From the NCBI RefSeq assembly GCF_000336875.1, contig NZ_AOJK01000014.1:23182-65137 (forward strand): a stretch of 41,956 bases of DNA, read 5' to 3'. The position numbers and the translations under genes are program-made. Under the pieces are notes generated by a model. It was not told where the DNA came from. It ran no database searches and worked only from the letters and a program-made list of their open reading frames with translations. Source of the stretch: Halorubrum californiense DSM 19288 (GTDB lineage Archaea > Halobacteriota > Halobacteria > Halobacteriales > Haloferacaceae). Positions within the stretch are counted from its first letter, which is position 1, and each line of letters begins with the position of its first letter. Shown piece after piece: positions 225-10,488 of the stretch.

Positions 225-578
225 GTGACGCAGCCAATCGGCCCTCTACAGTCCGCGGTTGACGGGTGGTCCGTAGAGGGGTCACTGTTGCTGCTTGCGG
301 TCGCGCTTGTCGCTGGTCTCGGAACGGGAGTTCTCTTTGTCATCAGCGTCGTCGCGTACCGTCGACGGCGAGGGGCACAGTACGGACTGATTGCCGCCGC
401 GGTCGGGGTGCTGTTGTTCCGATCAGTTGTGGGCGCGGGAACGATTCTCGGTGTCGTTCCGATGCCGATTCACCATTTCCTCGAACACAGCCTCGACTTC
501 CTGATCGCGGCGATCGTCCTCTACGCCGTGTACGCACATGCGCCGGGAACGGTCGGAAACGATGCCACCTCGGACTGA
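225..578 (+). CDS. Small three-helix membrane protein near the nos genes
   Basis: The product is 117 residues with three hydrophobic stretches, at about residues 18-44, 52-76 and 86-106. A short basic loop (YRRRRGAQ) follows the first helix. A histidine pair (IHHFLEHS) sits just before the third helix and could bind metal, but that is only inference. The start is GTG at 225. An A/T-rich TATA-like element (TTCTTATT, 197-204) lies about 25 bases upstream, which suits a leaderless mRNA. It converges on nosY (end 626), and its own promoter lacks the motif shared by the four nos-island promoters. I do not recognise a function. A membrane partner of the copper or N2O machinery is possible from position alone. 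Confidence 0.75.
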   Translation: MTQPIGPLQSAVDGWSVEGSLLLLAVALVAGLGTGVLFVISVVAYRRRRGAQYGLIAAAVGVLLFRSVVGAGTILGVVPMPIHHFLEHSLDFLIAAIVLYAVYAHAPGTVGNDATSD

Positions 579-625: not shown

Positions 626-1489
626 TCAGTACCCGCCACGCCTGCGAATCCGTTCGTTGACGACATCGAGCCGTCCGCGGTACGCGAGCGTCACAACTGC
701 GACTGCGGTTCCGGCGAGAGTCCAGCCGACGAGTGAGCCGACCGCACGGCCGGTGTGGACGAACTCGCCGTCAGACGCAAAAGCGACGCCGACAACGTGT
801 TCGAAGACCAGCCCGCGGAACGCCCCGTTCGGCGTTAGTGCGAGCGTTTCGGCGATCCCGGTGGCCGAAGCGCCACCCGCGAGCGACCGGAGGATCGCGA
901 GGTCGCCGCCGAGGACGCCGCCGAGCAATACGAGCAGTCCGAGCGCGATCGCGCTCCGTCGGCTCGATGCGACCGTCGAGACCGCCGCCGCCAGCGACAG
1001 GTACGCAGCCCCGAACAGCAGGACGAACGCGATGAACCGCACGAACAACAGCGGCGAGTCCACTCCGCTGTGCGTCGCGAAGATCCCCGTGTCCGGTGCC
1101 GCAGTTACCCAGACGTACACGCCCACGAGCGCAAATGGAATCCCGACGACCGCGAGGAGCGCGACCAGCCGCGCAAACAACACGCCGACAACGTAGCCGA
1201 CGGTACTCACGGGATAGGTCCGGATCACGGTGAGTTCACCGCTCGTGGCGTCGGTGAGCAGCGCACGGTACCCGAGTACCACGCCGAGAAGCGGGACGAG
1301 CACCTCTGTCGGGAGGAGCAGGTCGACCACAGCCGGGACAAACCCGGTCCCCCCGCCGCCGCCGACTGTGACGAGTCCGCCGAGGACGAGCAGCAACCCG
1401 GCTGCGAGGGCAGGGTAGCCGGGGGTCCGTTGAACGGTCAGTAGTTCCCGACGGAACACGATCGAAACGCTTCCGAGGAACCGACTCAT
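626..1489 (-). CDS. nosY: ABC transporter permease NosY
   Basis: This is the membrane permease of the NosDFY ABC system, which is needed to assemble the copper-sulfur centre of nitrous oxide reductase. The 287-residue product has about six hydrophobic segments, as in ABC-2 type permeases: near residues 24-45, 60-75, 100-128, 146-170, 178-200 and 250-272. It has no ATPase motifs of its own. Its start codon overlaps the stop of nosF by four bases (ATGA, 1486-1489), so the two are translationally coupled. It is the last gene of the nosD-nosF-nosY operon. Assignment rests on topology plus operon order; the sequence alone would only say ABC-2 permease. Confidence 0.85.
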   Translation of the reverse strand: MSRFLGSVSIVFRRELLTVQRTPGYPALAAGLLLVLGGLVTVGGGGGTGFVPAVVDLLLPTEVLVPLLGVVLGYRALLTDATSGELTVIRTYPVSTVGYVVGVLFARLVALLAVVGIPFALVGVYVWVTAAPDTGIFATHSGVDSPLLFVRFIAFVLLFGAAYLSLAAAVSTVASSRRSAIALGLLVLLGGVLGGDLAILRSLAGGASATGIAETLALTPNGAFRGLVFEHVVGVAFASDGEFVHTGRAVGSLVGWTLAGTAVAVVTLAYRGRLDVVNERIRRRGGY

Positions 1490-2289
1490 CGGTCCGACAC
1501 CCCCGCGACGTGGACCGACTCCGGCGCGGTCGCGTCACCGTTCTCGGGGCCGTCATCGCTATCGCCATCTCCAGCGTCGGTCACCGCGCTCGCACCGTCG
1601 CCGACAACAGCTCGGAACAGGGATGTCACGTTCTCGACCCCGTGATCCGTGAGCAGTCGTTCGACGGATCCCGCCGCGGCCACGCGACCCCGATCGAGAA
1701 CGACTATCTCGTCGGCGTAGCTGTCGACGAGGTCGAGGTCGTGTGAGCTGACGACGACGGCGGTGTCGTCGTTCGCACGCGCGGCGGCGGCTCGGAAGGC
1801 TCGCTCGCGCATCGCTGGGTCGAGTCCGCTCGTCGGTTCGTCGAGCACAGCGATCGCCGGATTCCCGAGCGTCGCCTGCGCGATGCCGAGCAGGCGTCGC
1901 ATCCCGCCCGACAGCGCCGCGACACGTTTGTCACCCGCGTCGGCCAATCCGACGTCCGCCAGCGCTGCGTCGGGATCGCCGTCGGCCAGCGCCGCGTAGA
2001 AGCCGAGCGTCTCGCGGGCCGTGAACGCGTCTCGGAACGGGACCCGCTGCGGGAGGTACCCGATCCGCTTGCCAGCATCGGCTCCGTTCTCGTGCGCGTA
2101 CCGTACCTCCCCGTCGACCGGCTCGACCGCTCCCGCGAGGATCCCGAGCAGCGTCGATTTCCCGGAGCCGTTCGGACCGACGACGACCGTGACACCGGAG
2201 GTGATCGAAACGGAGACCTCGTCGAGAACCGGAACCCCGCCGTAGGTCCGTGTCACGTCGACGAGTTCAGCGAGCGTGTGTTCACTCAT
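1486..2289 (-). CDS. nosF: ABC transporter ATP-binding protein NosF
   Basis: This is the cytoplasmic ATPase that powers NosDFY. Walker A (VGPNGSGKST) is near residue 38, the signature is LSGGMRR near 125, Walker B is AIAVLDEPT near 145, and the switch histidine is in VVVSSHDLDLVD near 180. The protein is 267 residues, slightly long for the family because of an acidic tail of about 40 residues rich in Asp and Gly, a common haloarchaeal feature. It overlaps nosD upstream and nosY downstream by four bases each. The operon context makes NosF far more likely than a generic export ATPase. Confidence 0.9.
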   Translation of the reverse strand: MSEHTLAELVDVTRTYGGVPVLDEVSVSITSGVTVVVGPNGSGKSTLLGILAGAVEPVDGEVRYAHENGADAGKRIGYLPQRVPFRDAFTARETLGFYAALADGDPDAALADVGLADAGDKRVAALSGGMRRLLGIAQATLGNPAIAVLDEPTSGLDPAMRERAFRAAAARANDDTAVVVSSHDLDLVDSYADEIVVLDRGRVAAAGSVERLLTDHGVENVTSLFRAVVGDGASAVTDAGDGDSDDGPENGDATAPESVHVAGVSDR

Positions 2290-4343
2290 CTGTCGTTCCC
2301 CACGTTTCGAGTGCCGATCTGACCAGTCGTACTCTGGGTAGTCGTGTTTCCATCAGGTGCTTCTCGAACTGCCGTCGGTGAACCGAGGACAGATCGCCAG
2401 TCCGCGTGGATCGGCCCTCTCTGTCCGACGTCAGAGTCCGTCACCGCATCGATTCGGTCGGGATGGAAGGGCGTGGACACCGGTGCCGGATCGATGATGC
2501 TTCCGGTGCGAGCACCGGGTACGGTGCCGCGCAGTCGGTCCAGCAGTACGGCCGCGGGCGACTCCCGCACGGCGACGGCCGCGGCCTCCCGATGAAGTGC
2601 GGCGTCGACCGGCGATGTCGGGCGATACGCCCGTTCGCCAGACGGTCGCGGCCCGAGGTTCGCCCCCTCCCAGTAGTTGCCGCGGTCGCCGTCCGCCCAC
2701 ACGCGGAGGGCGCCCGCGCCGGCGGCCGCGTGGTCGTCGTTTCCGACGAAGTCGTTCGCGACGACACGGCTCGACGGGACGACCGTCGTCGCGCGAGCGC
2801 CGAGTTCGTTGTCGACGACGACGTTGTGTTCGTACAGCGACCCGCGAGCGCTCGTCGAGAACCCGAGTTCGTTGCCGACGAGCGTGTTGTAGCCGATGTA
2901 CGTTTGCGTCCCCGACGATTGGATCCCTGCCCCGGAGTTCCGAACGTCGTTGCCGACGATCGCGTTCCCCGCGGGACGAGTCATCACGGTGATGCCGGCG
3001 AACAGCTCGTTGCGGGCCGTGTTATCCGCGACCAGCGCGTCGCCGGTGTACATGAGATGGATACCGTACCGGTTATCCGTGAACGTCGAGTTCCGGATGA
3101 CCGACCCGTCCGCGCGGTGGAGATAGATCCCGTCACGACCGCCCTCGAACCGGCTGTCGGTGACGGCCACCCGTGACTCCATCCCCGCGATTCCCATGAA
3201 ACCGTTCTGCCACGTCTCAGAGCCGTCGACGCGGAGGTTGCGGACGACGGCGTGTGAGCCCTCGCGCAACAGGAGCCCGCTCGCGTTTGTCTCGACGGCG
3301 ACGTTCTCGACGACGAGCCCGGGCGCGTCGATCGCCCGGAGCCCCGCGTCGCCGTGGCCGTACCCGTTCTGAATGTTCGCGTCCCACGCCTCGGTCTCTT
3401 CATCCCTATCGGCGCGCGCCGCTTCCGGATCTCGCGTCTGGTTCCCAGCACCGTCGATCCGGAGCCCCCGAATCGCGACGTCGGCCGCGCGAACGGTGAC
3501 GACAGAGCCGTTGCCGTCACCGCTGATCCGTGCGCCGTCGCCGACGATGCTCACGGATTCGTTGACAGTCACTGTCTCGTGATAGACTCCTTCTGGAACG
3601 ACGACCGTCGTGTTCGGCGGCGCCGCCTCGACCGCCGCACCGATCGTCGTCGCGTCTTCACCGACTACCACCGAGACGGGACGGTCCGCGGCTCGTTCCG
3701 CCTCGGCGATCCGGTCGTCTGCCGCCTCCCACCGATTCGGTGCCAGCGACCGCACCGTCGCCGCGGAGTCGGTGTCGAACGAGCGGTCTCGGACCGATTC
3801 CCAGCCGACGACCGTCCCGTCGTGATCGGTCGCGAACGACACGGCAGCCTCGCGGCTGCTGAAGGGTACCACGGCCTCGCCGGCCGGCGTGCGGACGCTA
3901 CTGTCGACGACGTACTGAGCGTCCTCGGCAGGGGTCCATCCGCCGGCCCCGCTCGCCGACAACAGCCCGTTATCGGTCGTCCCAGGGTCGCGGTGATCGA
4001 AGGTTTCGACGTACGCGACGAGCGGGTAACCGAACTGCTGTTCGGTTCGACCGTCCGACAGCGACGTGACGAACGAACCGACTCCGTTGTACCCGACGAC
4101 GTACTGTAACTGTGAGTAGAACACCTGTGCCCGCGGCACCGTCGCGTTGCCGCCCATCATCTCGTCGGTCTCCGACGACAGCCCGAGTTCGGTCGTGTCT
4201 TCGTACGCCACCGGCTCGGGGACCGACTCGGCCGGGTCGACGACGAACGCGCCCGCAGTCCCGACCACAGCGAGGAGCGTCCCCACGGCGACAACCAAGC
4301 GAACGTACCTCGACCGGCTGTCATCGGGAGTGAACACTGCCAC
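2286..4343 (-). CDS. nosD: NosD, periplasmic-type beta-helix protein with an N-terminal NosL-like domain
   Basis: NosD is the extracytoplasmic component of NosDFY and works in maturation of the CuZ centre of N2O reductase. The 685-residue product starts with a hydrophobic signal or anchor segment at about residues 14-34. Residues 70-186 resemble the NosL fold: an FG.PLVAYVE strand, then WTPAEDAQYVV, TPAGEAVVPFSS and a trailing WESV. From about residue 210 to 550 there are parallel beta-helix (CASH/PbH1) repeats such as GISGDGNGSVVTV, NSTFTDNRYGIHL and NELFAGITV. The start chosen is GTG at 4343 because the nos promoter motif ends exactly 32 bases before it. The N-terminal domain has no cysteine. 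A Ser/Thr-rich tail ends the protein. Confidence 0.88.
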   Translation of the reverse strand: MAVFTPDDSRSRYVRLVVAVGTLLAVVGTAGAFVVDPAESVPEPVAYEDTTELGLSSETDEMMGGNATVPRAQVFYSQLQYVVGYNGVGSFVTSLSDGRTEQQFGYPLVAYVETFDHRDPGTTDNGLLSASGAGGWTPAEDAQYVVDSSVRTPAGEAVVPFSSREAAVSFATDHDGTVVGWESVRDRSFDTDSAATVRSLAPNRWEAADDRIAEAERAADRPVSVVVGEDATTIGAAVEAAPPNTTVVVPEGVYHETVTVNESVSIVGDGARISGDGNGSVVTVRAADVAIRGLRIDGAGNQTRDPEAARADRDEETEAWDANIQNGYGHGDAGLRAIDAPGLVVENVAVETNASGLLLREGSHAVVRNLRVDGSETWQNGFMGIAGMESRVAVTDSRFEGGRDGIYLHRADGSVIRNSTFTDNRYGIHLMYTGDALVADNTARNELFAGITVMTRPAGNAIVGNDVRNSGAGIQSSGTQTYIGYNTLVGNELGFSTSARGSLYEHNVVVDNELGARATTVVPSSRVVANDFVGNDDHAAAGAGALRVWADGDRGNYWEGANLGPRPSGERAYRPTSPVDAALHREAAAVAVRESPAAVLLDRLRGTVPGARTGSIIDPAPVSTPFHPDRIDAVTDSDVGQRGPIHADWRSVLGSPTAVREAPDGNTTTQSTTGQIGTRNVGNDR

Positions 4344-4375
4344 ACTGAACGTTCTGTTTGCGGCGACTTATCCCG

Positions 4376-4397
4376 TCTGGTGTATCTCTCGAACGCG
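4376..4397 (-). promoter_or_regulatory. nos-island promoter motif upstream of nosD
   Basis: Read toward nosD, this 22-base element contains TTCGAGAGATACACCAGA. It ends 32 bases before the GTG start of nosD and is followed immediately by GGGATAAG at the TATA position. The copy at 6124-6145 matches all 22 bases. If the mRNA is leaderless, the motif occupies about -33 to -54, covering the BRE position and the adjoining upstream activator position. Confidence 0.75.
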
Positions 4398-4455
4398 TTC
4401 CGTCGCGGGTCCGTGAGAGACGCCACACGCCGGACGACGACATCTCTGTGAACCG

Positions 4456-4477
4456 GGCTGTCGACAATCGCACCAGA
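4456..4477 (+). promoter_or_regulatory. nos-island promoter motif upstream of the SafE-like gene
   Basis: This is the most divergent copy of the shared motif. It keeps TCGACA and CACCAGA in register (TCGACAATCGCACCAGA) and ends 32 bases before the ATG at 4510. Orientation relative to the gene and spacing to the start are the same as for the other three copies. The TATA region is weak (GGTACAAG). Confidence 0.6.
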
Positions 4478-4509
4478 CGGTACAAGCCGTCCGGCAACGA
4501 ATCTCGCGT

Positions 4510-5310
4510 ATGATCGAGCCACTCCTCCGGATCGACGTCGCGCTGTTCGTCCTTATCGGCGTGTTCGGCGGCGCACACTGCATCGGGATGTGCGGGCCAC
4601 TCGTGACGATGTACTCGGAGCAGATGACACCGCGTCCGGACGGTGGAACGGCGGCCGTTCACGACGGGCGAGCCGGGCACCTCACGACCTACGAGGTCCG
4701 ACAACACTTCCTGTTCAACGTCGGCCGGGCGACGACGTACGCCGTCTTCGGGGCCCTCTTCGGTGCGCTCGGCAGCGTCGTGTTCGTAACCGCCGACCAG
4801 CTCACCCCGGTCGCTGACCTCTTGCGAGGCACCGTCGGCCTCGCGGTCGGCGGCTTCATCGTACTGACCGGGGTTCGGTACGTGATCGGCGGCAGCGGCG
4901 GCGACATTCGTATTCCCGGTGTCCAGCGCGTCACGTCGTGGCTCGCGGCGAGAGTCCACCGGCACGTGAACAGCCCGAGTATCGTCGGCCTCGGGGCCGT
5001 TCATGCGTTACTTCCATGCCCGATGCTGTACCCCGCGTACTTGTTCGCCTTCGCGAGCGGCTCTCCGACGACTGGCGGGATCGCCCTCGGTGCTCTGGGT
5101 CTCGGTACGATCCCGGCCGTGTTCCTCTACGGAACGGTCATCCAGTCGATCGACGTCACACACCGACGTCGCGTCCATCGGTTACTCGGCGTGGTGTTCG
5201 TCGCGCTGGGGTACGTACTCGTCGCGCACGGGCTGATGGCGCTTGGCGTTCATATCCCCCACCCGATGTTCCCGCATTATCAGCCGCTCGGGGGTGGAAT
5301 GGGACACTAA
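4510..5310 (+). CDS. SafE-type (COG2836) six-helix heavy-metal transport membrane protein
   Basis: The 266-residue protein belongs to the sulfite exporter TauE/SafE-like group that includes copper transporters for cytochrome oxidase assembly and UreH. The hallmark is the motif HCIGMCG at residues 23-29 in the first helix, a likely soft-metal site. Further helices lie at about 78-105, 112-132, 160-190, 195-220 and 232-252. A second cysteine sits in ALLPCPM near residue 176. It is transcribed divergently from nosD, and its ATG at 4510 is fixed by the promoter motif 32 bases upstream. Together with the adjacent SCO and NosL genes, a role in moving copper to N2O reductase or an oxidase is the best inference; the metal is not proven by sequence. 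Confidence 0.85.
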   Translation: MIEPLLRIDVALFVLIGVFGGAHCIGMCGPLVTMYSEQMTPRPDGGTAAVHDGRAGHLTTYEVRQHFLFNVGRATTYAVFGALFGALGSVVFVTADQLTPVADLLRGTVGLAVGGFIVLTGVRYVIGGSGGDIRIPGVQRVTSWLAARVHRHVNSPSIVGLGAVHALLPCPMLYPAYLFAFASGSPTTGGIALGALGLGTIPAVFLYGTVIQSIDVTHRRRVHRLLGVVFVALGYVLVAHGLMALGVHIPHPMFPHYQPLGGGMGH

Positions 5311-5403
5311 CGGAGCTGGATACCCTCATACAATCGATAGAGCGTAGCTCTCCCCGAGTGCGTCGAGAGAAACACAGTCCGACTTCCCACACCTCACGGG
5401 CGC

Positions 5404-6090
5404 TCACGCGGTCGCGACTCGTTCGAGGTCGTCGACGAGCCGTTCGATGTCGGTCTTGGGGCCCCGTGGGTACGCACGCTCGATGACCCCTCGCTCGTTG
5501 GCGAGAATGATGAGCCCGTAGTGCGGGAAGCGGTACTCAAGATTCTCGATATCGTCGGCCGGTGCCTTCTCGATCTTCAGACCGAAGTGCTCGTCGTGGA
5601 TCTCTTGGGCCCGCTCGTAGGTCTCCGGGCGGAGGAAGTGCCAGTTCCCGGCGTCGAGGTCGACACTCTGCTGGCCGGCATACTCGCGGAGCGTTTCGGC
5701 GGTGTCGCGCTCGGGATCGAACGTGGTGGGGAGAAACGCGACTTGATCGCCGTACCCCGCCTCGGCGGCGGCTTCCTGCCCGCGACGGAGTCGGAGAATG
5801 AGGGCGGGACAGACCCCGTCCGGACAGTTTGTGTAAAACGAGGTCCACAGCACCGCGCGCTCGCCCTCGAGCTGTGCGGTCGAGATCGCCTCGTCGCGGA
5901 TCGGATCGGGGACGGTGAAATCGGGCATCTCGTCGCCGTAACTCGGGAACGACGCCTCGCTGAGATCTTGATCTGGGGGGCCGAGAATAGCTCCCTCGGC
6001 GCCGGGGTCACCGAGTACACCGAGACAGCCGGCAGTGCCGGCGACGACTCCCAAAGCACTGGCCGTCTTACAGAAACTCCGTCTATCCAT
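5404..6090 (-). CDS. SCO1/SenC-family copper chaperone, Tat lipoprotein
   Basis: This is a thioredoxin-fold protein of 228 residues that would deliver copper to a cuproenzyme outside the cell membrane. The N-terminus MDRRSFCKTAS is a Tat signal followed by the lipobox AGC, with lipidated Cys22. The metal site is TNCPDGVCP with Cys89 and Cys94, so four residues lie between the cysteines rather than the usual three. The conserved distal histidine is probably His190 in RFPHYGLI. In canonical SCO proteins two Cys and one His bind Cu. The gene is divergent from nosL, converges on the SafE-like gene and has a full copy of the nos promoter motif 33 bases before its ATG, so co-regulation with nosD is likely. 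Confidence 0.85.
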   Translation of the reverse strand: MDRRSFCKTASALGVVAGTAGCLGVLGDPGAEGAILGPPDQDLSEASFPSYGDEMPDFTVPDPIRDEAISTAQLEGERAVLWTSFYTNCPDGVCPALILRLRRGQEAAAEAGYGDQVAFLPTTFDPERDTAETLREYAGQQSVDLDAGNWHFLRPETYERAQEIHDEHFGLKIEKAPADDIENLEYRFPHYGLIILANERGVIERAYPRGPKTDIERLVDDLERVATA

Positions 6091-6123
6091 AGATCACTGT
6101 ATCGCTCCCGTCGTTTTGAGGTA

Positions 6124-6145
6124 TCTGGTGTATCTCTCGAACGCG
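6124..6145 (-). promoter_or_regulatory. nos-island promoter motif upstream of the SCO gene
   Basis: This 22-base element is identical to the one upstream of nosD (4376-4397). It points toward the SCO gene and ends 33 bases before its ATG at 6090. Confidence 0.75.
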
Positions 6146-6171
6146 GCGCCTATTCGGCTCCTGAAACGAAC

Positions 6172-6193
6172 CGCGTTCGACAGTTACACCAGA
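6172..6193 (+). promoter_or_regulatory. nos-island promoter motif upstream of nosL
   Basis: The element reads CGCGTTCGACAGTTACACC plus AGA. It differs from the nosD and SCO copies at two of 22 positions. It ends 32 bases before the GTG at 6226 and runs straight into ATCTTATT at the TATA position. With the SCO copy (6124-6145) it forms a divergent pair whose two copies are separated by 26 bases. Confidence 0.75.
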
Positions 6194-6225
6194 ATCTTAT
6201 TCGATATCTGCGAGGAAATACGTGT

Positions 6226-6855
6226 GTGAGATCGAACGCAAACCATCGCTCAGCATCGCGTCGGCGGGCGGTTCACGCGATCGCTACAGGAGTCGCAATC
6301 GGGGTGGCTGGGTGCCTCGGGGGATCCGCCGAGCAAACCCCTGACCCGGTAGATCTGTCAGGGCAGAAAACCGATTACCAAGGCGGAATGGTGATCGGGG
6401 ACCACGGGGGTCCAAACGGGCAGGTGTTCTATGCCAATATGGAACCGGAGCCTCGACAAGGGCCCGTCCAAGGTCCAGACGGAACGGAGAATCTCGCTTG
6501 GTTCCACACGCTCGCACACGGTCTCTTCCCCTACCACTTCGACATGGTCGATACCGGTGCGGAGGCGACCGCGATGTACGTCACGGACTACTCTCGCGTC
6601 GACTGGGAACTCGCTGAGGAAGCCGAGCGCAAAACGATGCCGGCGCCGACCGCACCCGAGACGTTTTCGGATGCGACTCGGCTCACCTACGTCGTCGGGT
6701 CCTCGGTGATGGGAGGCATGGGTCCGGACCTCATCCCGTTCTCTGAAACCGATGCGGCCGAACGGCTCGCGGAGACTCACGGCGGTCAAACCATCGAGTA
6801 CGACGATATTGACAGAACGCTCATCGAAGGGATCCGGATGACCGGCATGGGATAA
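6226..6855 (+). CDS. nosL: NosL-family lipoprotein lacking the usual cysteine metal site
   Basis: NosL is a copper-delivery lipoprotein for N2O reductase. The GTG start at 6226 gives 209 residues with a Tat signal (SASRRRAVHAIATG) and lipobox AGCLGG. It is supported by the promoter motif 32 bases upstream and TATA-like ATCTTATT. The mature part follows the family pattern: a GGMVIGDHGGP.GQVFYAN block near residues 52-70, AMYVTDYSRVDW near 118, YVVGSSVMGGMG near 158, then PFSETDAAERLAETHGG. The family's CxxCGM site has become TDYQGGM, and the lipobox cysteine is the only Cys left. Several methionines (VMGGMG, RMTGMG) could supply thioether ligands. The reading frame extends further upstream, but that part only mirrors the SCO gene. 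Confidence 0.82.
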   Translation: MRSNANHRSASRRRAVHAIATGVAIGVAGCLGGSAEQTPDPVDLSGQKTDYQGGMVIGDHGGPNGQVFYANMEPEPRQGPVQGPDGTENLAWFHTLAHGLFPYHFDMVDTGAEATAMYVTDYSRVDWELAEEAERKTMPAPTAPETFSDATRLTYVVGSSVMGGMGPDLIPFSETDAAERLAETHGGQTIEYDDIDRTLIEGIRMTGMG

Positions 6856-6880
6856 TTCAATCTCTTTCTTCTTCTATTCC

Positions 6881-7372
6881 ATTGGAGGTCGAGATCCCGA
6901 GGGCTTCGCCGCCGTCGTCGACGCGTGTGAAACGCTCGTCTTCCGGATGTACGCAATTGACTCACGACGTGCGGACACGGGTCGAGGACGACTCGTTCGA
7001 CTCGCTCACGACGTTCACACGACACCGTCGATCGATCCCGAGACCGTCGTCGAACGACTCGATGCGATCACGAAGCGATACACGGATGACAATCGGTTCG
7101 AACGGCAACTCCGCGACCCGGATTTCTACCAAAGCACGTCGAGGCGGGATACGAAGTACCTCCTCTATCACTACGGCCAAGCGGTTGAATCCGAAGCGGG
7201 CGAAGAGGTCCTGACCAGTCCGGGCCACATCATCTCGACTGAATTCCAAGTCGAACACGTCCTTGCGCGAAAACTTCCCGCTGATGCGATTCCCGAGAGC
7301 CTCGTCGGTGAGTTCGATGACCACGTCCACCGTCTCGGAAACCTCACACTCTCCCGCCCCGTACTCAGTCCA
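6881..7372 (+). pseudogene. Remnant of a GmrSD-like DUF262/DUF1524 restriction endonuclease
   Basis: One frame carries the C-terminal part of a DUF262/DUF1524 protein. It begins without a start codon (IGGRDPEGFAAVVDACETLV) and passes DDNRFERQLRDPDFY and TKYLLYHYGQAVE. It reaches the His-Me (HNH-like) core QVEHVLARKLP and VHRLGNLTLS, which in the family contain the catalytic His and Asn. After about 7372 the similarity stops and the frame runs on as Ser/Thr/Pro-rich nonsense to 7507. The N-terminal DUF262 ParB/Srx-like nucleotidase half is absent. This is a truncated copy of a type IV modification-dependent restriction enzyme or toxin relative, squeezed 25 bases after nosL, and most likely non-functional. 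Confidence 0.65.
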
Positions 7373-7560
7373 GAAAGTCGGACGACACCGTCGTCGAACA
7401 CGACTATCTCACCACCGATGTGGACTCCCGGACCCTGCGTAACGTCCTGTCACCGGCTTCGTTATCGTGGGTCCCGTGGATTTCACCACACCAGTTGCTA
7501 CTCATAAGACAATACGAGCGACCGCTATATGATGGCTACAGTAACGATTTGACTCATCGG

Positions 7561-7593
7561 CACTTTATATACGCCGTGTCAGTATTGTTGCGT
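7561..7593 (+). promoter_or_regulatory. TATA box for the secreted repeat protein
   Basis: ACTTTATATACG at 7562-7573 places TTTATATA about 25 bases before the ATG at 7594. This fits a leaderless transcript and supports that start over the upstream in-frame codons. Confidence 0.6.
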
Positions 7594-10488
7594 ATGGTAC
7601 GGCCCTCCCGTCGCCGCTTCCTCGGAGGAAGCGCCCTGACGCTCGCGACGCTGACAGGTGTTCTCTCTCCCGAAACCACCGTGAACGGTGCTGATCGACC
7701 GAGCGATCTCGATGTCGATATCTCGTCCCCGTTCGCCGACGTATTCCTCCCGCTCCCGACGGGCGATGCCCTCTCAACGACGTACGCGATGATTATCGCG
7801 GAGCGCGTCGACGCCGACACGGAAGCGGACCTGAGTTATCGCGCTCGGTCCGTGGCCGACCGGCTCGACATCGACGTCGACGAGCTGGCGGCGACCGCGT
7901 CGATCACTCCCTCCGAACGTGGAATCCAACTGGTGACGGCGGCCGGCGGGTTCGACCGTCCCGACCGCGGTGAGACGATCGCGGTCGGAGCGGGAGACGG
8001 GGTGTCCAGCGACGATGTCCCCGCGGCGGCCGAAACGACTGACGAACTCCCTGCCGGGTGGCGACTTACCGAGACCGACGAGGCAGCGTTCGTCGCCGGT
8101 GAGGGCGTGGCGGCTGCCGCGACTGGCGGGGATTCGTCGAGTCCCCGCGGTCGGTCGGACTCGTCGGCAGACGACATGAGCGAGCGACGGGTCGAAGCCG
8201 CTCGCGTTGCCGGCCGCGCGGCCGTCGATGAGGTCGACCGCTTTGCGGAGTCATCGCTGGGCACGGCTGCCCTCCCTCGGCTCGGTGGATTCGGAACAGT
8301 GCTTTTGGCCCCGGACGCCGCCGGCGGCCCGTTCCCGCTCTCGGTCCCCGACGACGTCGACGCGTTCGCCGCCGGCTTCGAGGCCGACCCGAACGACCTC
8401 AGAGATATCGACGGAACGGCGGAGAACGCATACGTGGTCCGTCCGGCTGGTGACCTCCACGGGGTCGACGACGAGACTGTCAGGCGACTCGTGCGTACCA
8501 TCGATCCCGCCGACCCCGTCGAGATGGACATCACGCGAACCGACGGCGTCGTGCTCGTCGACGCCGTCGTCGAGGCCCCGCCGGAACTCGACCGCGAGGC
8601 GTCGCCGGACGCCCACGTCCGGGCGCAGTTCGACCGCGACGCGGGCACCGTGACGTTCGAGCACGCCGAAGGCGAGGCGGTGCCGGTCGACGAACTGGAG
8701 GTGTGGCACGACGGCGAGGAGGTGAGCGACGCGGTCTTCGACGGCGAGGAGTTCACGGCAGGTGATACGATCGCCGTCGACACCGGACTGATCGCGACCG
8801 TCATGCTGCGGTGGTTCGACCCGGACGCGAACGTCTACGACACGTACGCTCGCGAACAGGTCGATCGCGAAGCGTTCGCTCTCGACTACGACATGCGCGC
8901 CGAGACGCTGGAACTCAGCTACGAGGCCGAGCGCCCCGCCGACGCGAGCAGCCTTCGGCTGGTCCACCGCGACGAGGGGGGCGTCGAAACAGTCGGCGAG
9001 GAATTCACCGGCGGAACGCTCGACCCGGGCGACGAAGTCACCGTCGCGGACGTGTCGATCGGCGATAGTGTACAGCTATCGTTCGACGTCGAGCGACCGA
9101 TGGGCGGCGGCTCGCTCGTTCATTACCGCGCCCGCCCCCCGCGCGTTTGGATCCACTCGCACGCCGAGGAGGGGACCACGGTCAGGTACGACGACGAGGA
9201 GTCTCGTCCCGCCGACGCGTTCGTGACCCTCGTCGACGGAGAGCCGACCGACGCGCAGTTCGCCGACGAGTACGACACGCTCTCGGGCGACGAGGAGCTG
9301 GTTCTCGGCGAGCTTCCGCTGGGGAGTACGGTCGCAGTCGAGTGGCGGAAGCCGGACGAGCCGGTGGTTGTCGCCGAACACGAGGTCGTTCCGAACACGC
9401 GCGCATCGATCGAGTACGACCCGGACGCCGGCGAGATTACGGTCCAGCACGCGCGCGGACGGACGCTTCCCGCGTCGGCGTTGGAGCTTCAGGTCGGCCG
9501 TTCCCCGGCCGACGTTCAGCCCGAAGACGAACTCGACGAGTTTGGGCCGGACGCCTCGTTCACCGCTCCGGTGCGGCCGCTCTCACGGGTTCGACTCGTG
9601 TGGACCGGCGGCGACCGCGAACACCATCTCGGTGGCACAACCACGGCACGCGACGCGGTCGCGGCGGCCTACGACGACGACGCCGAGGCGATGACGATCG
9701 AGTACGTCGGTGAGCAGCCCGCCGATCCCGACCGACTGCGCGTGTCGGTGAACGGTGCCGGTGACTTCCGGGGAGAAGACGATCAGGAGTCGGCATTCGC
9801 GGCCGAGCACGACGAACTAACCACGGGGGACACGATCACGGTCGACGACGTCGGGCTCGACGACACCGTGGTCGTCAGCGTTCACACAGAGTTCGAGAAC
9901 GGCTCGGCGACCAGCTCCGTCGCCCACTTCTCGGGGGCACCGCGCCACGGATTCATGGTCGACCGGGGTGGTAGGGGCGGCGATGAATCGGAGACGACGC
10001 TCCGCTACGTCGGCGACGTCCGCCGCGACGCCGACGCCTTCCGGGTGCTGATCGACGGCGAGCCCGCACCGACCCAGCCCGCCGACGAGACGGACCGACT
10101 GACCGACGGGGAGACGCTGTCGCTCGGCGATCCGGCCGCCGGCGCGACGATAACCGTCGAGTGGACCGCCGGCGACGAGACGCGAACCGTGCTGGAACAC
10201 GTGATCCCGCCGGAGGCGACCTTCGAGGTCGCGTACGAGTCGGCCGACGACGGCGAGGGCGGCCTCGTGACGTTCACCCACGCCGGCGGCGACGCGCTCG
10301 ACGCCGACCGCGTCGACGTGGTCGTCGAACCCGCGACCGACGGACTGCGCCCGTGGGACGACGACGCCGACGAGGTGACCGCCGGCGACGAGACGAGCGT
10401 CACGATCGACTCGGAGCCCGAGATGGCCGTCGTCGTCTTCAACGAGAGCGAGGTCCTCCACCGCGAACGGCTCGATCAGGACGAGTAG
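7594..10488 (+). CDS. Large Tat-exported protein with tandem pilin-head-like repeats
   Basis: The 964-residue, strongly acidic protein begins with a Tat signal (RPSRRRFLGGSALTLAT) with no lipobox cysteine. Residues of about 30-335 show no family I recognise; they include a Ser/Asp-rich stretch near 195-215. From about residue 340 to the end there are some seven degenerate units of 75-110 residues, starting near 343, 430, 517, 604, 687, 800 and 875. Each has the order TVTFEHAEGEAV, a short strand (LEVWHDGE), F.AGDTI.VD, then a VRLVW-type strand. This matches the beta-sandwich head of haloarchaeal PilA pilins. A TATA box lies 25 bases before the ATG. A surface adhesin or cell-wall fibre is plausible but unproven. 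Confidence 0.8.
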   Translation: MVRPSRRRFLGGSALTLATLTGVLSPETTVNGADRPSDLDVDISSPFADVFLPLPTGDALSTTYAMIIAERVDADTEADLSYRARSVADRLDIDVDELAATASITPSERGIQLVTAAGGFDRPDRGETIAVGAGDGVSSDDVPAAAETTDELPAGWRLTETDEAAFVAGEGVAAAATGGDSSSPRGRSDSSADDMSERRVEAARVAGRAAVDEVDRFAESSLGTAALPRLGGFGTVLLAPDAAGGPFPLSVPDDVDAFAAGFEADPNDLRDIDGTAENAYVVRPAGDLHGVDDETVRRLVRTIDPADPVEMDITRTDGVVLVDAVVEAPPELDREASPDAHVRAQFDRDAGTVTFEHAEGEAVPVDELEVWHDGEEVSDAVFDGEEFTAGDTIAVDTGLIATVMLRWFDPDANVYDTYAREQVDREAFALDYDMRAETLELSYEAERPADASSLRLVHRDEGGVETVGEEFTGGTLDPGDEVTVADVSIGDSVQLSFDVERPMGGGSLVHYRARPPRVWIHSHAEEGTTVRYDDEESRPADAFVTLVDGEPTDAQFADEYDTLSGDEELVLGELPLGSTVAVEWRKPDEPVVVAEHEVVPNTRASIEYDPDAGEITVQHARGRTLPASALELQVGRSPADVQPEDELDEFGPDASFTAPVRPLSRVRLVWTGGDREHHLGGTTTARDAVAAAYDDDAEAMTIEYVGEQPADPDRLRVSVNGAGDFRGEDDQESAFAAEHDELTTGDTITVDDVGLDDTVVVSVHTEFENGSATSSVAHFSGAPRHGFMVDRGGRGGDESETTLRYVGDVRRDADAFRVLIDGEPAPTQPADETDRLTDGETLSLGDPAAGATITVEWTAGDETRTVLEHVIPPEATFEVAYESADDGEGGLVTFTHAGGDALDADRVDVVVEPATDGLRPWDDDADEVTAGDETSVTIDSEPEMAVVVFNESEVLHRERLDQDE

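What the first reader, a model, noticed from the sequence alone, without database searches (positions are those of the whole stretch)
4376..6193. Oriented promoter motif shared by four nos-island genes at a fixed distance from the start codon
TTCGAnAGnTACACCAGA-type elements lie before nosD (4376-4397), the SafE-like gene (4456-4477), SCO (6124-6145) and nosL (6172-6193). The nosD and SCO copies match over 22 bases; the nosL copy differs at two; the SafE copy is looser. All four have the CACCAGA end facing the gene and stop 32, 32, 33 and 32 bases before the start codon. In a leaderless mRNA this puts the motif against the BRE/TATA. It fixes the GTG starts of nosD and nosL and defines a regulon. 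Known haloarchaeal denitrification regulators such as NarO and DmsR are candidates, but I cannot match this sequence to a published site.
Basis: partly seen in the sequence, partly recalled or inferred. Interest (0 to 1): 0.7.

Follow-up and report, generated by a model that had tools for sequence, protein, structure and literature searches.

The report
Haloarchaeal copper-delivery promoter motif
Four neighbouring genes in a salt-loving archaeon share a real control sequence just upstream of their starts; the same sequence precedes copper-handling genes across the whole haloarchaeal class, is probably read by a little-studied regulator encoded beside them, and is not the nitrogen-respiration switch it was first taken for.

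Summary
TTCG-N8-ACCAGA precedes nosD, SafE, SCO and nosL, oriented towards each gene and ending 32, 32, 33 and 32 nt before the start codon. It is conserved at the same distances in orthologous clusters across Halobacteria. A profile of 160 promoters places a TATA core at about -26 and a conserved A at -9, so these look like leaderless promoters with the motif against the BRE/TATA. A strict version gave 20 hits in 20 distant genomes and none for the reversed pattern; 19 of the 20 lie 32-35 nt before an ORF start.

The denitrification reading fails. The own genome has no NosZ or NirK above cut-off. Motif number is the same in NosZ-positive and NosZ-negative Halorubrum (3.3 vs 3.4). Twelve NosZ loci lack it; some carry the published CGAA-N4-TTCG motif instead. 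Targets are exported or membrane metal-handling proteins: NosL, NosL-NosD, SCO1/SenC, DsbD-like, DUF7350, DUF7405.

The best candidate reader is a double winged-helix ArsR-like protein of the HVO_0163 family (PF24266), not NarO or DmsR. It is encoded beside motif clusters, one copy about 55 nt left of this window, and co-occurs with the motif. Binding, signal and direction of control are untested. Haloferax has the regulator but mostly not the motif.

The parts
4376..4393 (-). motif copy before nosD (TTCGAGAGATACACCAGA); 32 nt to GTG at 4343
   Evidence: conserved at gap 32 in nosD orthologues
4368..4370 (-). predicted TATA core (TAA in GATAAG), -27 to -25 of nosD start
   Evidence: position from the 160-promoter profile
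2286..4343 (-). nosD: NosL-NosD fusion protein (PF05573 + PF05048), GTG start, first gene of nosD-F-Y
   Evidence: NosD domain at 392-559, NosL domain at 58-186
1486..2289 (-). nosF: ABC transporter ATPase, in operon after nosD (no motif of its own)
626..1489 (-). nosY: ABC-2 type permease, in operon (no motif of its own)
4460..4477 (+). motif copy before SafE-like gene (GTCGACAATCGCACCAGA, one mismatch in TTCG); 32 nt to ATG at 4510
4510..5310 (+). SafE-like gene: DsbD_2 family (PF13386) membrane protein
6124..6141 (-). motif copy before SCO (TTCGAGAGATACACCAGA); 33 nt to ATG at 6090
5404..6090 (-). SCO1/SenC family copper chaperone (PF02630)
6176..6193 (+). motif copy before nosL (TTCGACAGTTACACCAGA); 32 nt to GTG at 6226
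6226..6855 (+). nosL: NosL family copper chaperone (PF05573), GTG start
225..578 (+). DUF7471 (PF24283) small membrane protein with invariant HHxxxHxxD, divergent to the candidate regulator gene, which starts about 55 nt left of the window (C14:22630-23127, - strand)

Best explanation
The motif (consensus CGTTCGASRRNYRCACCAGA, core at -50 to -33 of the start codon) is a promoter-proximal operator abutting the BRE/TATA of leaderless genes. It defines a class-wide haloarchaeal regulon of exported or membrane proteins that acquire and deliver copper (and perhaps iron): NosL, the NosL-NosD/F/Y transporter, SCO, DsbD-like SafE, DUF7350 and DUF7405. The likely reader is the HVO_0163-family double winged-helix ArsR-like protein encoded in the same clusters. 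It would bind as one unit across TTCG...ACCAGA; the site lies where archaeal activators recruit TFB/TBP, so activation is favoured, with copper demand or redox stress as the likely signal, possibly sensed with the histidine-rich membrane protein DUF7471. Shown by sequence: the element, its geometry, its targets, its conservation and its linkage to the regulator. Inferred: binding, direction and signal.
For: Fixed geometry across species: SCO gap 33, nosD/nosL/SafE gap 32 in Halorubrum-type clusters, although spacers have diverged. Profile of 160 promoters: TATA core near -26, conserved A at -9; the TTCG-ACCAGA spacing stays 8 while the distance to the start varies (32-42), so it behaves as one unit. 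Strict pattern in 20 distant genomes: 20 hits, 0 for the reversed pattern; 17 lie before DUF7350, DUF7405 or NosL, 19 lie 32-35 nt before an ORF. Operon-internal nosF and nosY have no motif (0/33, 0/19). Regulator adjacent to or within the motif cluster in Halorubrum, Haloarcula, Halobacterium hubeiense and others. Across 391 genomes the motif occurs in 308/332 with a close regulator and 29/59 without (Fisher p about 1.6e-14). Own genome lacks NosZ and NirK above cut-off but has two heme-copper oxidases. Related motif-free SafE genes sit with a copper-type P-ATPase, and one SafE sits with a ba3 oxidase.
Against: No binding or expression data. Haloferax genomes keep the regulator, but most lack the motif and none shows it at the regulator's neighbours. 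The regulator's own promoter almost never carries the motif (1/53). The co-occurrence test ignores phylogeny, and in the plasmid islands regulator and targets travel together. Many of the loci in the profile were fetched because they carry the motif. The regulator has no conserved cysteine, unusual for a copper sensor. AlphaFold models of the regulator and of DUF7405 were too poor to use. The metal role of DUF7350/DUF7405 rests on weak evidence (PF10634 just below cut-off).
Confidence: 0.66

Rival explanations
1. The motif is a denitrification operator read by NarO, DmsR or another Bat-type (HTH_10) regulator.
For: The genes are named nos genes, and the TTCG half resembles half of the published CGAA-N4-TTCG denitrification motif.
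Against: No NosZ or NirK above cut-off in the own genome; motif number independent of NosZ in 52 Halorubrum genomes; no exact motif in 12 NosZ loci, of which five carry CGAA-N4-TTCG-like sites, four of them exact; the window has no CGAA-N4-TTCG at these promoters.
Confidence: 0.05
2. ACCAGA is a special BRE read by one of the haloarchaeal TFB paralogues, and TTCG belongs to a separate upstream factor.
For: ACCAGA lies at the BRE position, directly upstream of the TATA core; a TFB gene lies near the cluster in Halorubrum salinarum and two other genomes.
Against: TTCG and ACCAGA keep an invariant 8-nt spacing even where the distance to the start changes, as expected of one site; the TFB gene is near only a few clusters; ACCAGA is not a general promoter word (CACCAGA occurs 5 times in the 42-kb window, four of them here).
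Confidence: 0.13
3. The motif is real and defines this metal-handling regulon, but is read by a different, unlinked transcription factor; the HVO_0163-family gene is a linked passenger with another target.
For: Haloferax keeps the regulator mostly without the motif; the regulator gene is not itself preceded by the motif; some motif-bearing genomes lack a close regulator.
Against: Repeated adjacency in different cluster arrangements and the genome-level co-occurrence; I saw no other regulator family recurring beside the motif in the loci examined.
Confidence: 0.15
4. The similarity reflects recent duplication of one promoter within the island, with no regulatory meaning.
For: nosD and SCO copies are identical over 22 bases.
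Against: The element is conserved between orthologues while flanks diverge, and it recurs before unrelated gene families in distant genera at the same position.
Confidence: 0.01

Closest known systems
Haloferax mediterranei semi-palindromic denitrification motif CGAAYATDKTYG (PMC10062603, PMC11218638); a similar motif was reported by Hattori et al. 2016 as cited there
   Same: Haloarchaeal promoter element shared by several genes; contains a TTCG half.
   Different: CGAA-N4-TTCG palindrome 66-79 nt before nirK, nor and nosZ starts; no ACCAGA; different genes; found here upstream of some NosZ genes that lack our motif.
HVO_0163 family (Pfam PF24266 plus ArsR-like HTH), Haloferax volcanii
   Same: The regulator encoded in the motif clusters belongs to this family.
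   Different: No function or binding site found in the papers searched; HVO_0163 is only reported as more abundant after hypochlorite (PMC10294847).
Bat/bop upstream activator sequence of Halobacterium (from memory)
   Same: Activator site directly upstream of the TATA box of a haloarchaeal promoter.
   Different: Different sequence and regulator family (Bat, HTH_10); not compared here beyond recall.
CopR-type archaeal copper regulators (Pyrococcus CopR, PMC7830388; Halobacterium VNG1179C, from memory)
   Same: Archaeal regulators of copper genes.
   Different: They control the response to excess copper; the genes here look like delivery and assembly factors.

Membership tests
NarO/DmsR denitrification or DMSO regulon | Targets include denitrification enzymes (nosZ, nirK, nor, nar) | tested here: not met
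   12 NosZ loci without exact motif; own genome has no NosZ/NirK above cut-off, and its exact motif hits lie only at the two islands plus three non-promoter sites; nor and nar promoters were not examined one by one
NarO/DmsR denitrification or DMSO regulon | Bat-type HTH_10 regulator linked to the targets | tested here: inconclusive
   The adjacent recurring regulator is HVO_0163 family; whether HTH_10 genes elsewhere act here was not tested
CGAAYATDKTYG denitrification motif | CGAA-N4-TTCG palindrome at the promoter | tested here: not met
   No CGAA-N4-TTCG at the four promoters; window hits only at 645, 2747, 34428, 40171
Haloarchaeal leaderless promoter with a TATA-adjacent upstream element | TATA core near -27 relative to the start codon | tested here: met
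   Profile: TATA core at -27 to -25, conserved A at -9
Haloarchaeal leaderless promoter with a TATA-adjacent upstream element | Transcript 5' end at the start codon | not testable with these tools
   Needs 5'-end mapping
HVO_0163-family regulon | Regulator gene linked to and co-occurring with the motif | tested here: met
   exception: Haloferax
HVO_0163-family regulon | Regulator binds the motif and changes target expression | not testable with these tools
   Needs gel shift, ChIP or a knock-out
nos gene cluster for nitrous oxide reductase maturation | NosZ encoded with or near the accessory genes | tested here: not met
   No NosZ above cut-off in the own genome; in relatives NosZ lies elsewhere, e.g. 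G006 C1:2743963 against the cluster within C1:2319500-2334000

The most novel reading that the evidence does not exclude
A paired haloarchaeal copper-demand switch: the membrane protein DUF7471 (invariant HHxxxHxxD) senses copper or redox state and signals to its gene neighbour, the double winged-helix HVO_0163-family protein, which then binds TTCG-N8-ACCAGA, partly standing in for the BRE, to recruit TFB at leaderless promoters of copper-delivery genes.
Probability: 0.22. Interest if true: 0.72.

Novelty: new member of a known kind. Interest (0 to 1): 0.52.

Why it matters
It gives a sequence-defined, class-wide regulon for copper delivery in haloarchaea, another role for genes usually labelled denitrification accessories, a first candidate function for the HVO_0163 family and a lead for DUF7350, DUF7405 and DUF7471, and a simple start-codon check (32-34 nt) for these genes. 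It is directly testable in laboratory haloarchaea.

Tried and rejected
Hattori 2016 (NarO) is not held, so its site was taken only as cited by PMC10062603. AlphaFold models of the regulator (mean pLDDT 51) and DUF7405 (33) were too poor for fold searches. PDB sequence searches gave only generic winged-helix hits for the regulator, nothing for DUF7405 and a weak FtrA hit (E 0.28) for DUF7350. I suspected DUF7405 to be a DyP-type peroxidase from its sequence, but Pfam shows only DUF7405, so I do not claim it. CsmR (PMC13286277) was checked and is a different protein, hvo_1209. The class-wide excess of the loose pattern over the reversed control is partly codon bias, since several sampled hits have no gene start behind them, so I rely on the strict pattern.

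Full report
OBSERVATION. All four elements are at the stated places and orientations. The core forms are nosD 4376-4393 (-), SafE 4460-4477 (+, one mismatch), SCO 6124-6141 (-) and nosL 6176-6193 (+), with gaps of 32, 32, 33 and 32 nt to GTG 4343, ATG 4510, ATG 6090 and GTG 6226. Shuffled sequence gives 0.12 matches even at three mismatches; the window has three exact ones.

OWN GENOME. The window is C14:23182-65137 of a draft genome; its closest relatives in the named collection are Halorubrum. TTCGN8ACCAGA has eight exact hits: three in this island, two on contig C45, and three with no promoter context. C45 carries a second island with SafE (91% identical), SCO and NosL (70% identical) paralogues, each with the element (the NosL copy with one change in TTCG), gaps 32, 33 and 32.

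CONSERVATION. Eighty SafE loci were collected without reference to the motif. Among SafE proteins of about 65% identity or more, nearly all have ACCAGA preceded by a TTCG-like half at 32 nt (Halorubrum, Halobellus) or 36-42 nt (Natrinema, Natronomonas, Natronococcus and others); the more distant paralogues, which in the loci I checked sit before a copper-type P-ATPase, do not. SCO orthologues keep 33 nt, nosD orthologues keep GTG at 32 nt, nosL keeps 32 nt. A profile of 160 distinct promoters gives CGTTCGASRRNYRCACCAGA, a TATA core at -27 to -25 and a conserved A at -9, the layout of a leaderless haloarchaeal promoter. The left part, TTCG-N5-CGNA, is a weak inverted repeat. Many loci in this profile were fetched because of the motif, so its fractions are not unbiased.

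CLASS-WIDE REGULON. The loose pattern occurs in 337 of 391 haloarchaeal genomes, but part of that is background. In Halorubrum, a chromosomal cluster (NosL-NosD, SafE2, SCO2) carries it, and 29 of 32 sampled instances lie before regulon genes (my count). A stricter pattern in 20 genomes outside the genus gave 20 hits and no reversed-control hits: 10 before DUF7350, 5 before DUF7405, 2 before NosL, one before a membrane protein, one before a beta-propeller-like lipoprotein, one without a clear ORF; 19 lie 32-35 nt before the start (my count).

NOT DENITRIFICATION. NosZ and NirK are not found above cut-off in the own genome; two heme-copper oxidases are present. The genome is a draft, 95.6% complete, so absence is not absolute. 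Among 52 Halorubrum genomes, 30 have NosZ with 3.3 motif hits on average and 22 lack it with 3.4 (my arithmetic). Twelve NosZ loci have no exact motif; four carry CGAACGTGTTCG upstream and a fifth a one-base variant, close to the published motif (PMC10062603). A true nosZ cluster in Natronorubrum aibiense shows only two one-mismatch matches in 28 kb, neither at nosZ.

CANDIDATE READER. A 167-aa protein with PF24266 (HVO_0163 N-terminal HTH) and an ArsR-like HTH lies in the clusters of Halorubrum, Haloarcula, Halobacterium hubeiense and others. In this genome one copy (75% identical to the C45 copy) is at C14:22630-23127 (-), starting about 55 nt left of the window and divergent to DUF7471 at 225-578. 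Motif presence is 308/332 with a close regulator and 29/59 without (groups counted by hand, cut-off E 1e-30, phylogeny ignored). The family has near-invariant histidines (19, 37, 57, 111) and no conserved cysteine. DUF7471 has an invariant HHxxxHxxD and lies within 1.5 kb of the regulator in 32 of 68 regulator loci, many of which are short.

MECHANISM. The site occupies -50 to -33, touching the BRE; archaeal activators commonly bind there (established knowledge), while a repressor could also block TFB from there. I favour activation, about 70:30. NosL and SCO are copper chaperones (NosL: PMC6530538), and SafE-like genes sit with copper ATPases or a ba3 oxidase, so copper delivery to oxidases is the most likely role in this strain, which lacks NosZ. 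Direction, signal and binding are inferences.

LIMITS. Haloferax keeps the regulator but mostly lacks the motif; the regulator promoter lacks it; structure predictions failed; I found no binding or expression data in the sources searched.

Noticed in passing
L010 (G000 C45) 5474-9053: A second copy of the island (NosL, DUF7471, regulator, SCO, SafE) lies on contig C45; its SCO gene contains an N and a local duplication that looks like a scaffold join.
   Followed up: partly
window 225-578 and homologues: DUF7471, a small membrane protein, has an invariant HHxxxHxxD and neighbours the HVO_0163-family regulator; possible metal-sensing partner.
   Followed up: partly
L196, L198, L203, L206, about 200 nt upstream of the NosZ match: CGAACGTGTTCG, close to the published Haloferax denitrification motif, upstream of Halorubrum NosZ.
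   Followed up: partly
window 2286-4343: NosD carries an N-terminal NosL domain, a NosL-NosD fusion.
   Followed up: no
L133, L167, L169, L171 (TTCGAAAGACAAACCAGA) and L134, L170, L172 (TTCGAACGTCGAACCAGA): Near-identical motif-bearing DNA shared by genomes of different genera, probably mobile; the second precedes an 88-aa zinc-finger-like membrane protein at 49 nt.
   Followed up: no
L103 7353-8387; L146; L147: A TFB (transcription factor B) gene lies near the motif cluster in three genomes.
   Followed up: partly
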